A DNA stretch of 64,000 bases from Dethiobacter sp. (GTDB taxonomy: Bacteria; Bacillota; Dethiobacteria; Dethiobacterales; Dethiobacteraceae), in NCBI GenBank assembly GCA_018335875.1, contig JAGXRN010000079.1:62001-126000 (forward strand). The letters run 5' to 3'. Under the pieces are notes generated by a model. That model saw only the letters and a list, made by a program, of their open reading frames with translations, was not told the DNA's origin and did not search any database. Below are positions 5,086 to 59,040 of the stretch, one piece after another (the stretch's first letter is position 1; each line of letters starts with the position of its first letter). The position numbers and the translations under genes are program-made.

Positions 5086-5136
5086 CAAAAAGCCAAGACA
5101 GGTAGGTCAGCCGAGTGAAACCTACCCGTCTGGGCT
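5086..5136 (-). terminator. Riboswitch expression-platform terminator
   Basis: On the minus strand three stacked helices (GGCT/AGCC, GTCT/AGAC, ACCTACC/GGTAGGT) form a long hairpin ending in TTTTTGTTTTC. It lies between the guanine aptamer and the permease, so it is the likely off-switch when purine is bound. Confidence 0.8.
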
Positions 5137-5218
5137 TTTATCCCTCCGGTGTAGCGCTAGCGCCTGCGCCACTTGGACCAGCCCCGTCTGCACGGGCGGA
5201 ACCCTAGGCGCACTTCCC

Positions 5219-5285
5219 CTCGTAGTCAGATAATTTACGGTTATCTGGTAGAGACTTTCAGGCCATATTCCCGAAGCTATACGAG
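5219..5285 (-). promoter_or_regulatory. Guanine-type purine riboswitch aptamer
   Basis: Read on the minus strand, P1 is CTCGTA paired with TACGAG. The core contains GAATATGG, then AAGTCTCTACC, a P3 hairpin CAGATAA/TTATCTG with loop CCGTAAA, and closes with CTGACTACG. These are the conserved purine-riboswitch elements. The base of the specificity position (the C in GACTACG) is that of guanine rather than adenine aptamers. It precedes the NCS2 purine permease by about 300 bases with a terminator in between. Confidence 0.93.
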
Positions 5286-5301
5286 TTATTCAGTTACCTT
5301 T

Positions 5302-5330
5302 AAGGTAACAGATTCGACATGGCCTGTCAA
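5302..5330 (-). promoter_or_regulatory. Putative promoter of the riboswitch-permease transcript
   Basis: On the minus strand TTGACA is followed after 17 bases by TACCTT, placing a start just before the aptamer. The -10 half lies in a perfect palindrome GTTACCTTTAAGGTAAC (5293-5309), a possible operator. Confidence 0.6.
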
Positions 5331-27434: not shown

Positions 27435-27690
27435 AAAACTCACGTCCCCTGTAAAGGACGAGAGTATCTCGCGGTACCACCTTTTTTGGCTAAAAAGCCC
27501 ACTCTGTCGTGCTTGGCACGTGGCGTTAACGGGCTGACCCGGCGTAACCTACTTAGCTTATTGCTGTTTGGTCCGCGGCTTAAGGGTGCGCTTCTGCCTG
27601 TCTTCCGTACCGGGCTTTCACCGCCCCCGGTTCGCTTTGACTTTATTCAGGCTTACTCTCCCCATCATGGCCTTCATTTCATATGTAACT
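27435..27690 (-). promoter_or_regulatory. T-box riboswitch for the arg operon, specifier probably CGC (arginine)
   Basis: The minus-strand leader of argC contains the conserved T-box sequence AAGGTGGTACCGCG (about 27469-27482), which pairs with the tRNA acceptor end. A competing terminator (CTCTCGTCC...GGGGACGTGAG then TTTTTT) follows at about 27435-27465. Upstream, the stem-I region shows AGTA and GGTGAAAGCCCGG segments. The specifier loop reads GAAGCGCACC, where CGC (27588-27590) is an arginine codon in the usual position before ACC. So uncharged tRNA-Arg should switch the operon on. Confidence 0.92.
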
Positions 27691-51938: not shown

Positions 51939-52721
51939 TTAGCTAATTACCCTGTCTGTGCCGCTGTACACATTAAAGCGGCGGCCACGTACAAAACCGA
52001 TTAGTGTAATCCCCAGTTTTTCCGCAAGTTCAATACTGAGTGTAGTAGGCGCGGACCTTGAAACCAGGATAGGAATACCGATTTTTGCTGTCTTCACCAG
52101 GATTTCTGAGGAAATCCTGCCGCTTGTCACCAATATTTTATCATTCAGCGGCACATTCTCCTTAAGACAAAGACCCAGGATTTTGTCCACGGCGTTGTGT
52201 CTGCCGATATCCTCACAAAAATATAAAATTTTGTCCGGTATACACAACGCTGCACTGTGGATGCCGCCTGTCAGCCTGAACAGGTCAGCATTTTCCTGCA
52301 GTCCGCCCATGAGTTCCAAAACCTGTTTGTAAGTAACAGTGAGCGGTGAGGATACAGGCTTACTTTTAAGGGAGTCAAGGACACTGAAAAAAACCGTCCC
52401 TTTGCCGCAGCCAGAGGTAATAGTCCTCTTACCGTAAAGCTTCTCAGCCAGTTTTTCCCCGCCTGTCTCCACAAAAACAAAACCGTTTTCCCTGTCATCC
52501 TTAAGCGTTTTTATCTCACTAAAATCACCGATAATCCCCTCGGAACGCAAAAATCCCACAGCAAGCATATCTGTGAGCTCAGGAGTGCACAGCAATGTAA
52601 CAAACTCCTGCCCGTTCAGATAAATGGTAAGAGGAGCCTCCACCACCACAGCATCACTGATGTCACGGGCACCCTTATCATCCACCCTGCTTATTTCCTT
52701 TTCCCGTACTCTCTCGTCCAT
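51939..52721 (-). CDS. fdhD: Formate dehydrogenase accessory sulfurtransferase FdhD
   Basis: Transfers sulfur from a cysteine desulfurase to the molybdenum/tungsten cofactor of formate dehydrogenase. 260 residues, ATG with GGGAGGTTGTT. Motifs: [27 protein letters not shown], the cysteine loop TSGCGKGT (C105; only one cysteine rather than the C-x-x-C of the E. coli protein) and [13 protein letters not shown]. Repeat R2 abuts its ribosome site. Serves the fdhA gene about 1.2 kb upstream on the same strand. Confidence 0.95.
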
Positions 52722-53961: not shown

Positions 53962-56628
53962 TTATTCTGCTTTCTCAAGGCGGACGGCACAGACTTTGAG
54001 CTCAGGGGTTTTGGCAATGCGACAGAACTCTGAATTAGTGAGCAGGTTTGCCGCCGATTCGGCGAAGTGGAAGGTCATGAAGACGACGCCGCGCTGTACA
54101 CGCTCTGTGAGTCGGACGTTACACCTGACGGAACCGCGGCGTGAACTGACAATAACAGAGTCATTGGGGCCAATGCCGAGTTTTTCGGCGTCCAGCGGGT
54201 TGATTTCCATCAATTCTTCGCTGTGGAACTGATTCAGGCCCTCAGTTTTGCGTGTCATTGTCCCTGTATGATAATGGTAGAGGCTGCGCCCCGTTGTGAG
54301 GAGGAAGGGGTACTCCCCGTCAGCCTGTTCCGCGGAGAGCCTGTATTCAACTGCTGAGAATTTGCCGAGGCCGCGGCTGAATTTGCCGACATGGAGTATC
54401 GGTGTGCCCGGATGTTCGGTGTCAGGGCAGGGCCACTGAATGCCGCCGTCTTCGAGGCGCTGATAGTTGATGCCCGCATAACTTGGCGTCAACCGGCTGA
54501 TCTCCTCCATAACCTGCTCTGAATTCTCGTAGTTCCAGTCAAACCCTAATTTCCGGGCAAGCATTGTGATAATCTCCCAGTCAGGCTTGCTTTGCCCGCG
54601 CGGGTTCAGCGCCTTGCGCACCCGCTGGACACGCCGCTCTGTGTTGGCAAAGACGCCGTTCTTTTCAGCAAAGGTAGCCGCAGGCAGAACCACGTCAGCC
54701 AGTTGGGCGGTCTCTGTGAGGAAGATATCCTGAACTACCAGGAAGTCCATCTTCTCAAGGGTGTGGCAGATATGACTCCCGTCGGGGTCACTGAGGAACG
54801 GGTTCTCACCCATGATATACAGTGCGCGGATACGGTCCTCGCCCGCCGCCTGAAACATTTCCGTCATCGTCATGCCCGGCTTGTCGGGAAGTCGGACATT
54901 CCAAGCGTTTTCAAACTTCTCGCGGACGGTGGGATCGGCAACCGGCTGATAACCGGTAAAGACTACCGGCAGCGCGCCCATGTCACACGCCCCCTGCACG
55001 TTGTTCTGACCGCGAAGCGGGTTTAAGCCTGCCCCTGGTTTGCCAAAGTTTCCTGTAGCCAGGGTCAAATTGGCAAGTGAAAGCACATTTTCGGTTCCGC
55101 TCGTATGCTGCGTCACACCCATGGTGTAGAGGACGGTTGCGCTGTCAGCGCCGGCATAGAGCCTGGCAGCCTTAATAATATCCTCCGCCGGTACCCCGCT
55201 AAGCTGCGAGGCGTATTCAGGCGTATACTTGTCAACTGTGGCTTTCATGTCCTCAAAGCCTTCTGTGCGGTTGGCAATAAACTCGTTGTCAACGAGGCCT
55301 TCTTTAAGGATAACATGCAGCATGCCGTTAATCAGGGCGACGTCGGCGCCCGGTTTGAGCGGCAGGTAAACATCGCAAATTTCAGTCAGTGGAATACTGC
55401 GCGGGTCGGCGACAATTAGTTTGGCACCGTTTCTGACTGCTTTCCTGATCCTGTAACCTATAATGGGGTGATTTTCAGTGGTGTTGGAGCCGATAACAAA
55501 AATTGCCTGGGCATTTTCCACTTCACCAATGGTATTTGTCATTGCACCGCTACCAAGAACAGTGGCCAGACCGGCCACAGTGGGAGCGTGTCAGAGACGG
55601 GCGCAGTGGTCAATATTGTTTGTCCCCAGCTGGCGCATTATTTTCTGGAAAGCAAAGTTATCTTCATGAGTGCAGCGCGCGGAACTGATACCGCCGACTG
55701 CCCACGGGCCTGATTCTTCAATTATCTCCCTGAACTTCTCCGCTACCAGTTCAAGCGCCTCATCCCAGGAAGCTTCCTCGAATTTGCCGTCCCGTTTGAT
55801 AAGCGGCGTTTTGAGGCGGTCCGGGTGATTGATAAAATGATAGCCGAAGCGTCCTTTAACACAAAGCTGGCCGCGGTTTACCGGATTTTCTTTATCACCG
55901 CGGACTGAAACGACGCGGTCACCTCTGACACCAAGGTAGATGCCGCAGCCGACTCCGCAATAAGTGCATACTGTTTTGACTTCCCTTGACGGGCGTTCGT
56001 GTATTTTAAACGCCAGGGCGCCGGTCGGACAGCGGTCCGCGCACTCGCCGCAGGACTCACATTTTGACTCTACGAGCGGCATGCTGCCTAAAGTGCTGAC
56101 CCTGGTACCCGTGCCGCGGTGGCTGAAGTCAATGGCCGCTATACCGTTAATCTCCTGGCAGGTCCGCACGCAAATGCCGCAAAGAATACAACGTGAATGG
56201 TCCATATCGAAGAACGGATTCGATTTATCCGTGGGAACTTCACTCATGCCGCGCCGCAGGCTGGCAAGGTTCTCATCGGTAATGCCAACAAAAGCTGATA
56301 CCCGCTGCAGGTCGCAGTCGTGGTTGCGGATGCAGGACTGGCAGTCGGGATTGTGGTTGGAAAGAATCATTTCCACAGTAACCCTGCGCACCAGAGATAC
56401 TGCCGGCGAATCCGTCAGGACTACCATGCCCTCGGTAACCGGGGCACGGCAGGCAGTGACAAGCTTGCCGTTGATATCTACCATGCAAACACGGCAGCCA
56501 CCAAATGTGGAGAGGTCAGGGTGGTAGCAAAGAGAGGGAATATAGATTCCTGCTTCTTTGGCAGCTTGCAATACTGTGGCGTCTTCGGCAGCCATAATCT
56601 CCTGGCCGTCAATATAAATTCTTGGCAT
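53962..56628 (-). CDS. fdhA: NAD(P)-dependent formate dehydrogenase catalytic subunit, selenoprotein (TGA read as Sec346)
   Basis: Formate/CO2 interconversion at a Mo- or W-bis-pterin site. One 888-residue protein only if the in-frame TGA at 55591-55593 is selenocysteine (CARL-U-HAPTVAGLA, the FdhA active-site motif). Order: NuoG-like [2Fe-2S] (C34, C45, C48, C60), a His/Cys cluster (C96, C99, C105), two ferredoxin-type clusters (C147-C157, C190-C200), the FdhA [4Fe-4S] (C221, C224, C228, C256), then molybdopterin domains to about 760 and a C-terminal cap (GRSLYHYHTGTMTRKTEGLN). It starts in the NuoF stop (TAATG) and ends the nuoE-nuoF-fdhA operon. Length matches Moorella FdhA. Confidence 0.95.
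55553..55593 (-). promoter_or_regulatory. SECIS-like hairpin after the fdhA TGA
   Basis: On the minus strand the TGA is followed by 12 bases, a 6-bp stem GTGGCC/GGCCAC and the loop GGTCT. The loop begins 19 bases after the TGA, the same spacing and loop bases that I recall for the E. coli fdhF SECIS. This marks the codon for selenocysteine by SelB. selA-D are not in the window. Confidence 0.9.
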
Positions 56629-58556
56629 TACTTCACCCCCTGTTCAATCTCAATTTTTTGCTGGCCGGTTATTTTGGAAATTGCGCTAAACTTTGCCGGG
56701 CAGCAGTCAATACAGATACCGCACTTCGAACATTTGGACTGGTCTATAACATGGGGCATTTTCTTTTCGCCCGAAATTGCCTCGGTGGGGCACGCCTTCA
56801 CGCATATCCTGCAGGCTTTGCATTTTTCCGGGTCAATCCAGTAAGCGATTAATTCTTTGCAGTTAAGAGCTGTACAGACTTTTTCATTAATATGGGCGTC
56901 GTATTCATGCCGGAAATAACGCAGCGTGCTGAGAACCGGATTTGGCGCACTCTGGCCCAGGCCGCAGATTGACCCGGCCATAATTGCTTTACCCATCTCC
57001 TGCAGTTTGTCCAGGTCTTCCGGCCTGCCGTGTCCGGAAGTGATATCCTCAAGAATCTTCAGCATCTGGCTCATGCCGTCGCGGCAGGGAGCACACTGTC
57101 CGCATGATTCGTCTACTGTAAACTCCACAAAATATCTGGCGATGTCAACCATGCAGGAAGTTTCATCCATAATCACCATACCGCCTGAACCCATCATGGA
57201 TCCAGCGTTAACAAGCGAATCGAAATCGACTTCCAGGTCAAGCATATCAGCCCGCAGGCAACCGCCTGAGGGGCCGCCGGTCTGAACAGCCTTAAATTCC
57301 TTGCCGTCTGGCACACCGCCGCCGATATCATAAATAATTTCCCGCAGCTTGATACCCATCGGCACTTCAATCAGGCCGCTGTTGCGGATCTTGCCGGTCA
57401 GGGCAAACACAGCAGTACCCGGGCTTCTTTCGGTGCCCGTGGCGGCAAACCAGTCTGCTCCTCTCCTGATGATATCAGGGATAAAGGAAAAAGTTTTAAC
57501 ATTGTTAAGCAGCGTGGGCTTGCCCCACAGACCTTCCTCTGTTGTCCGGGCTCTGGGAAGTGGCTTGGGCATGCCACGGTAACCTTCAATGGAACGGACA
57601 AGCGCAGTCGATTCGCCGCAGACAAAAGCACCTGCGCCCTGGAAAACCTCCGGGTCAAAGCTAAACCCGGTACCCATGATATTATCGCCGAGCAGGCGCC
57701 ACTCTCTGGCCTGTTGAATCGCCTTTTGCAGTCGCGTAACGGCAAGGGGATATTCCGCACGCACATAAATATAGCCATAACTTGCGCCGATGGCATAGGC
57801 GGATATTATCATGCCTTCAATTACAGCATGCGGGTCTCCTTCAAGCACCGAGCGGTCCATAAAAGCACCCGGGTCGCCTTCGTCACCATTACAGACAACA
57901 TACTTGGGTTCACCCGGCGCTTTAAGACAGGACAGCCATTTCTTACCCACCGGGAAGCCGGCACCGCCGCGGCCGCGCAGACCCGATTTGGAAACAACAT
58001 CTATCACCTGTTCGGGGGTATAGCCCTGCAGAATCTGAGACAGCGCCTGATAACCGTCAACTGCAAAATATTCACGGATATCTTCCGGGTTAATAATGCC
58101 GCATTTTCCAAGGACAATCCTTTTTTGCCTGTTATAGAAAGGAACTTCGTGTTCGGTCAGGCAGCGGCTGCCGTCAGAATCTTCATAGAGCAAACGCTCA
58201 ACGACTGTATCCTTCTCCAGGGAGGCTTCAACGATTTCTGCCACATCGCCTGCTTTTACCTTAGTATAAAAGACCCCCTTAGGCTCAAAGCGCACCAGCG
58301 GCCCCATCTGGCAAAAACCGTGACAGCCGCTGACAGCCACTCCGGACTCGCTATCCTTCCCCTCAAAAAGCAGCTCGACGTCAGCATCGATACCTTTTTC
58401 ACTTAGCAGCCGTTTTAACTCCCCATAAACGGCCAAGGATCCACCTGCCACACAGCCGGTGCCGGCGCAGACGAGAAAACGTGTTTTCCGCCTGGCATAA
58501 GCTGCCTTGCACTCATCTCTGATTTCAGCAATTCTGGATGGTGAGTCTATCTGCAT
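56628..58556 (-). CDS. NuoF-like flavin/Fe-S subunit of the formate dehydrogenase complex
   Basis: NAD(P)H-binding diaphorase, 642 residues, ATG with GGAGGTTGGAGTTGTT. Residues about 25-115 are a thioredoxin-like [2Fe-2S] domain (CAGTGCVAGG...CHGFCQMG). The NADH/FMN core has GLRGRGGAGFPVGKKW and CNGDEGDPGAFMDRS; the [4Fe-4S] ligands are ESCGQCAPCRDG with a later SICGLG. The C-terminal 55 residues hold two ferredoxin clusters (CKACRICVKACP, CSKCGICIDCCP). This three-part layout is that of HydB/NfnB-type bifurcating partners. It lets formate oxidation be coupled to NAD(P) and perhaps ferredoxin. Confidence 0.94.
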   Translation of the reverse strand: MQIDSPSRIAEIRDECKAAYARRKTRFLVCAGTGCVAGGSLAVYGELKRLLSEKGIDADVELLFEGKDSESGVAVSGCHGFCQMGPLVRFEPKGVFYTKVKAGDVAEIVEASLEKDTVVERLLYEDSDGSRCLTEHEVPFYNRQKRIVLGKCGIINPEDIREYFAVDGYQALSQILQGYTPEQVIDVVSKSGLRGRGGAGFPVGKKWLSCLKAPGEPKYVVCNGDEGDPGAFMDRSVLEGDPHAVIEGMIISAYAIGASYGYIYVRAEYPLAVTRLQKAIQQAREWRLLGDNIMGTGFSFDPEVFQGAGAFVCGESTALVRSIEGYRGMPKPLPRARTTEEGLWGKPTLLNNVKTFSFIPDIIRRGADWFAATGTERSPGTAVFALTGKIRNSGLIEVPMGIKLREIIYDIGGGVPDGKEFKAVQTGGPSGGCLRADMLDLEVDFDSLVNAGSMMGSGGMVIMDETSCMVDIARYFVEFTVDESCGQCAPCRDGMSQMLKILEDITSGHGRPEDLDKLQEMGKAIMAGSICGLGQSAPNPVLSTLRYFRHEYDAHINEKVCTALNCKELIAYWIDPEKCKACRICVKACPTEAISGEKKMPHVIDQSKCSKCGICIDCCPAKFSAISKITGQQKIEIEQGVK

Positions 58557-58587: not shown

Positions 58588-59040
58588 CTATTTCTTTACA
58601 ATGTTGGCAACTTTGCCCGGGTCAACCTGTCCGTAGGCTTCTTCATCTACCACAACAACCGGAGCCAGAGCACACGAACCAACACAGGCAACCCTCTCCA
58701 GGCTGTATTCGTAGTCCTCGGATGTACAGCCGCAGGCTATGCCAAGCTCGCGTTCAAAAGCTTCAAGAACACGTGTTGCGCCCTTCACATGGCAAGCCGT
58801 GCCATAACACACTTTAACCTGGTGTTTGCCACGCCGCGAAAAATAGAACTGGGCAAAAAAAGTAGCTACACCATAAACCTGGCTCTCAGGCATTGAAACA
58901 AACCTGGCTATCTGTTTCATAGAATCGGCCGGCAGATAACCCCGGACATTCTGGACAGCCTGCAGAATAGGGATTAATTCCTCCCGCTTCCCCTTAAACC
59001 TGGCAAATACGTCATTTATCCCGGCATCACTCTTACACAT
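58588..59040 (-). CDS. NuoE-like [2Fe-2S] subunit of the formate dehydrogenase complex
   Basis: 150 residues, ATG with AGGGGGGGATTTT. The thioredoxin-like [2Fe-2S] fold has ligands in KVCYGTACHVKGA and ERVACVGSCALAPVVVVDE. The N-terminal helical part (LIPILQAVQNVRGYLP...IARFVSMPESQVYGVATFF) is typical for NuoE/HydC. First gene of the operon, 31 bases before the NuoF-like gene. No promoter could be fixed in the 267-base stretch upstream. Confidence 0.95.
   Translation of the reverse strand: MCKSDAGINDVFARFKGKREELIPILQAVQNVRGYLPADSMKQIARFVSMPESQVYGVATFFAQFYFSRRGKHQVKVCYGTACHVKGATRVLEAFERELGIACGCTSEDYEYSLERVACVGSCALAPVVVVDEEAYGQVDPGKVANIVKK

What the first reader, a model, noticed from the sequence alone, without database searches (positions are those of the whole stretch)
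55553..55593. Selenocysteine codon and SECIS in fdhA
TGA at the active-site position, followed by a hairpin whose loop GGTCT starts 19 bases downstream as in E. coli fdhF. A gene finder would split this into two false genes. Predicts selABCD and tRNA-Sec elsewhere.
Basis: partly seen in the sequence, partly recalled or inferred. Interest (0 to 1): 0.75.

Follow-up and report, generated by a model that had tools for sequence, protein, structure and literature searches.

The report
Selenocysteine formate dehydrogenase with SECIS hairpin
An in-frame UGA 'stop' in a bacterial formate dehydrogenase gene is very probably read as selenocysteine with the help of an RNA hairpin just after it; the genome carries the complete machinery for this, and the arrangement is a textbook, already well-known one.

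Summary
Window 53962-56628 (-) is one 888-codon fdhA gene, interrupted only by TGA at codon 346 (55591-55593). That codon aligns with selenocysteine 140 of E. coli FdhF. A 6-bp hairpin with a GGUCU loop follows; the loop starts at nucleotide 22 counted from the U of UGA, exactly as in E. coli fdhF. All 46 TGA-bearing relatives keep the GGU loop codon, while Cys-bearing relatives mostly do not (Fisher p = 8e-13), and the stem shows compensatory changes. The genome encodes tRNA-Sec(UCA), selA, selB and selD, and selD is itself predicted to contain Sec. selB occurs in 39 of 44 genomes of TGA relatives and 8 of 34 of Cys relatives. fdhA lies next to nuoF- and nuoE-like genes and near fdhD: a cytoplasmic NAD(H)-linked formate dehydrogenase. 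It is a new sequence of a well-known kind; FdhA is among the most widespread bacterial selenoproteins (PMC1794560). Two minor oddities: Rfam's SECIS_3 scores this element below its cutoff, and the genome carries the wreck of a second, FDH-N-type Sec formate dehydrogenase whose SECIS is still recognisable.

The parts
53962..56628 (-). fdhA: 888-aa formate dehydrogenase alpha subunit; N-terminal NuoG-like 2Fe-2S/4Fe-4S region (1-210), molybdopterin catalytic region (215-885)
   Evidence: TIGR01591 893 bits (cutoff 666); Pfam domains; 44% identity to E. coli FdhF
55591..55593 (-). In-frame TGA, codon 346, selenocysteine position (HCARL-U-HAPTVAG)
   Evidence: aligns with Sec140 of E. coli FdhF; TGA in 46 and Cys in 34 of 80 relatives
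55562..55578 (-). SECIS hairpin: 6-bp stem (55573-55578 with 55562-55567)
   Evidence: 97.3% of cells paired in 44 sequences, G-C/A-U/C-G exchange at column 18/30
55568..55572 (-). SECIS apical loop GGUCU, nucleotides 22-26 counted from the U of UGA
55538..55596 (-). Rfam SECIS_3 (RF01989) match, 39.4 bits, below the gathering score of 63
56628..58556 (-). NuoF-like diaphorase subunit (FMN, 4Fe-4S), upstream partner gene
58588..59040 (-). NuoE-like thioredoxin-fold 2Fe-2S subunit
51939..52721 (-). fdhD: formate dehydrogenase accessory sulfurtransferase
   Evidence: TIGR00129 225 bits (cutoff 141)

Best explanation
fdhA encodes the catalytic subunit of a cytoplasmic NAD(H)-linked, Mo- or W-dependent formate dehydrogenase. 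SelB bound to the GGUCU-loop hairpin just downstream delivers Sec-tRNA(UCA) to UGA codon 346, so the ribosome inserts selenocysteine, the predicted ligand of the Mo/W centre, instead of terminating. [quoted passage not shown] Shown by sequence: gene, codon, conserved hairpin, complete Sec machinery. Inferred: actual Sec insertion, metal ligation, electron acceptor and metabolic direction.
For: One stop in 888 codons, at the catalytic position. The downstream 541 codons evolve as coding sequence: differences by codon position against the nearest relative are 63/43/254, 203 synonymous versus 88 nonsynonymous codons. Loop codon GGT in 46/46 TGA versus 7/28 Cys relatives; control Gly codons 13 and 15 show no significant difference (p = 0.08, 0.77). 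Compensatory stem pairs at 3 of 6 positions, 24 cells versus 4.1 in shuffles, 0/500 shuffles as high. tRNA-Sec, selA, selB and selD in the same genome. selB tracks TGA across genomes, 39/44 versus 8/34, p = 4.6e-9. fdhD nearby; NuoF/NuoE subunits adjacent.
Against: Rfam SECIS_3 scores below its gathering cutoff (39.4 versus 63). Single-sequence folding is only moderately better than shuffles (z = -1.76). The genome is a draft assembly with 6% estimated contamination, and the machinery lies on other contigs. There are no protein data.
Confidence: 0.97

Rival explanations
1. The TGA is a sequencing or assembly error in a Cys (TGC/TGT) codon.
For: Draft assembly; Cys is the alternative residue at this position in 34 relatives.
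Against: Independent relatives at 77% and 74% identity carry the same TGA; the full hairpin, which only two of 34 Cys genes keep, is present; Sec machinery present.
Confidence: 0.01
2. A real nonsense mutation: fdhA is a pseudogene truncated at codon 346.
For: A standard gene finder would see two ORFs; the same genome does hold a decayed FDH-N gene.
Against: Strong purifying selection after the TGA, no other stop or frameshift in 888 codons, conserved SECIS and full machinery.
Confidence: 0.01
3. TGA is read as another residue (for example Trp under code 4) throughout the genome.
For: The frame is open under any code reading TGA as sense.
Against: Other genes in the window give ordinary full-length ORFs under table 11; the residue aligns with Sec/Cys, never Trp; tRNA-Sec(UCA) present.
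Confidence: 0.01

Closest known systems
E. coli FdhF (formate dehydrogenase H) and its fdhF SECIS
   Same: Sec at the aligned position, 44% identity over the catalytic region; GGUCU starts at the same nucleotide 22
   Different: FdhF lacks the N-terminal NuoG-like region; the predicted E. coli hairpin bulges one of the two U at 17-18 (3 + 3 bp), whereas here U17 pairs with A31 in an unbroken 6-bp stem
NAD(P)-linked Sec formate dehydrogenases of acetogens, such as Moorella thermoacetica FdhAB, and bifurcating FDHs (PMC5736913)
   Same: Cytoplasmic catalytic subunit with NuoF/NuoE-like partners, Sec in the active site, Wood-Ljungdahl context (window also has 5-formyl-THF cyclo-ligase; a CODH-like ORF lies near tRNA-Sec)
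   Different: Which acceptor (NAD, NADP, ferredoxin or bifurcation) cannot be told here; not compared residue by residue with the Moorella protein
Formate dehydrogenase of the FdsABG type (PDB 6tg9, 6tga)
   Same: Full-length match including the N-terminal Fe-S region, 767.9 bits; NAD-linked with NuoF/NuoE-like subunits (own knowledge)
   Different: That enzyme uses Cys rather than Sec (own knowledge)

Membership tests
Selenocysteine-containing FdhA (formate dehydrogenase alpha subunit) | Formate dehydrogenase alpha family match above curated cutoff | tested here: met
   TIGR01591 893.2 bits versus cutoff 666.25
Selenocysteine-containing FdhA (formate dehydrogenase alpha subunit) | In-frame TGA at the catalytic residue, Sec/Cys in homologues | tested here: met
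Selenocysteine-containing FdhA (formate dehydrogenase alpha subunit) | Sec physically present in the enzyme | not testable with these tools
   Needs mass spectrometry or 75Se labelling
[quoted passage not shown]
   Loop GGUCU at nucleotide 22, same as E. coli fdhF; covariation; conserved loop G also described in PMC1794560
Bacterial SECIS element | Rfam SECIS_3 match above gathering score (a software threshold, not a biological defining feature) | tested here: not met
   39.4 bits versus 63, E = 2.1e-5 over the window, correct register over the full model. Read as a narrow model rather than a failed element, because the hairpin is conserved and covaries in this family
Sec-decoding trait | tRNA-Sec (selC), SelA, SelB, SelD in the genome | tested here: met
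Sec-decoding trait | SelB has the C-terminal winged-helix region that binds SECIS | tested here: met
   SelB aligns with the ribosome-bound SelB of PDB 5lzb over residues 5-627, including the C-terminal part
NAD-linked FdhA/NuoF/NuoE complex | Adjacent NuoF- and NuoE-like subunit genes | tested here: met
NAD-linked FdhA/NuoF/NuoE complex | Actual electron acceptor NAD(H), alone or by bifurcation with ferredoxin | not testable with these tools
   Needs enzyme assay

The most novel reading that the evidence does not exclude
Rfam's SECIS_3 misses a widespread subclass of FdhA SECIS elements (unbroken 6-bp stem, GGUCU loop, no bulged U), so a covariance model such as the one built here would recover unannotated selenoprotein genes in Dethiobacter-like Firmicutes and Chloroflexota.
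Probability: 0.35. Interest if true: 0.3.

Novelty: new member of a known kind. Interest (0 to 1): 0.15.

Why it matters
It fixes an annotation that automatic gene finders tend to break, and it indicates that this uncultivated, probably Dethiobacter-like bacterium depends on selenium for formate/CO2 conversion. It adds no new mechanism: FdhA was found in 67 of 75 Sec-using organisms surveyed in PMC1794560.

Tried and rejected
A genome-wide search with a model built from 44 FdhA SECIS elements found only this element (60.4 bits) and the FDH-N relic (36.3 bits); of the weaker hits (E 0.7 and above), the three checked show no selenoprotein-like frame. The model did not find selD's own SECIS, and I could not settle which hairpin serves selD. 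Single-sequence folding was set aside as weak evidence. A paper search for the Moorella SelB-SECIS structure returned nothing in the held library, so statements on that complex are left out. Sequencing error, pseudogene and genome-wide TGA reassignment were considered and rejected (see rivals).

Full report
The observation. On the minus strand, 53962-56628 is a single 888-codon frame with one in-frame stop, TGA at 55591-55593, codon 346. Counting from the T of TGA, GGTCT begins at base 22. The same count on fdhF of E. coli K-12 MG1655, fetched here, also gives 22.

The protein. FdhA scores 893 bits against TIGR01591 (cutoff 666). It has an N-terminal NuoG-like iron-sulfur region followed by the molybdopterin catalytic domains. 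Codon 346 aligns with Sec140 of E. coli FdhF within 44% identity over 686 columns. Directly upstream are a NuoF-like gene (56628-58556) and a NuoE-like gene (58588-59040); fdhD lies downstream (51939-52721). This is the layout of a cytoplasmic NAD(H)-linked formate dehydrogenase.

Is the downstream part translated? Against the nearest relative (L041, 77% identity) the 541 codons after the TGA differ at 63, 43 and 254 first, second and third positions, with 203 synonymous and 88 nonsynonymous codon changes. A dead tail would not show this bias.

The hairpin. Alone, the 49-nt stretch folds only moderately better than shuffles (z = -1.76). Comparison settles it. Eighty relatives from public genomes have TGA (46) or Cys codons (34) at this site, nothing else. 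In TGA genes the loop glycine codon is GGT in 46/46; in Cys genes with Gly there it is GGT in 7/28 (p = 7.8e-13). Control glycine codons 13 and 15 show no significant difference. All six stem pairs form in 39/46 TGA genes and 2/34 Cys genes. On 44 aligned TGA sequences the stem pairs in 97.3% of cells, with 24 double-sided changes against 4.1 expected from shuffles (0/500 as high); sliding the partner by 1-3 columns drops pairing to 19-55%. Column pair 18/30 switches among G-C, A-U and C-G. The sequences are related, so the shuffle counts are not probabilities; the slid controls and the TGA/Cys contrast carry the weight.

The machinery. The genome (a draft: 3.19 Mb, 85 contigs, 97.7% complete, 6.0% contamination) has tRNA-Sec with anticodon UCA (72.1 bits), selA (578.9 bits), selB (385 bits) and, just after selB, selD (388 bits) with its own in-frame TGA. 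The end of C15 with selA, selB and most of selD reappears at the start of C34 because the two contigs share a 7.9-kb end at 99.99% identity. SelB aligns with E. coli-type SelB on the ribosome over nearly its whole length, including the C-terminal part that binds SECIS. Across relatives, selB above cutoff occurs in 39/44 genomes with TGA fdhA and 8/34 with Cys fdhA (p = 4.6e-9). The five TGA genomes without it are draft assemblies, so gaps are a likely reason; one of them shows a SelB C-terminal half at a contig edge (G018).

Evolution. On a quick tree of 81 proteins Sec and Cys interchange at least 12 times; the window protein sits in a fully Sec clade with a Clostridiales MAG and a Dethiobacter MAG. 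Two Cys genes (L062, L072) nested beside Sec genes still keep the full hairpin, i.e. look like fossil SECIS elements. Sec-to-Cys conversion in FdhA with SECIS remnants is already described (PMC1794560).

Second formate dehydrogenase. C80 (L037) holds the first ~200 codons of an FDH-N alpha gene with TGA and a SECIS found by the model built here (36.3 bits). A large internal deletion follows, then fragments of the middle of the alpha subunit and the end of the beta subunit. Related genomes have intact ~1000-codon copies. It is a relic, or possibly an assembly artefact; not resolved.

Verdict. The finding is correct, ordinary and well precedented. The only mild surprise is that Rfam's SECIS_3 gives 39.4 bits, below its cutoff of 63, though in correct register over the full model. 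The stem here is unbroken, with U17 paired, whereas the predicted E. coli hairpin bulges one of the two U at 17-18. Selenocysteine insertion itself remains inferred until tested on the protein.

Noticed in passing
L037:4533-5769 (-), genome place about G000:C80:31532-32768: Wreck of a second Sec formate dehydrogenase operon (FDH-N type): alpha-subunit start with TGA and SECIS, then large deletions joining alpha-middle and beta-end fragments; intact copies exist in related genomes.
   Followed up: partly
L062 and L072 (fdhA homologues): Cys-encoding fdhA genes of Dehalococcoidia that still carry the complete CCGGTCTGG hairpin; they sit beside Sec genes in the tree, so they look like recent Sec-to-Cys conversions with fossil SECIS.
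   Followed up: partly
window 5125-5304 (-): A purine riboswitch (81.7 bits) directly adjoining and slightly overlapping a Guanidine-I/ykkC-like aptamer (62.4 bits, just under cutoff): looks like a tandem two-aptamer riboswitch, possibly guanine plus PRPP.
   Followed up: no
window 27451-27677 (-): T-box leader (113.9 bits) just upstream of the ORF ending its start at 27443.
   Followed up: no
L017:10475-18340 and L018:1-7866: Contigs C15 and C34 share a 7.9-kb end (one mismatch) holding selA, selB and most of selD: an unjoined assembly overlap that would inflate duplicate-marker contamination estimates.
   Followed up: partly
window 55538-55596 (-): Rfam SECIS_3 scores this well-supported element 39.4 bits against a gathering score of 63, so a default Rfam annotation misses it.
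   Followed up: partly
L029:1465-2526: selD has an in-frame TGA (SGG-U-ASK) and is predicted to be a selenoprotein itself; its SECIS hairpin was not resolved and is not found by the FdhA-derived model.
   Followed up: partly
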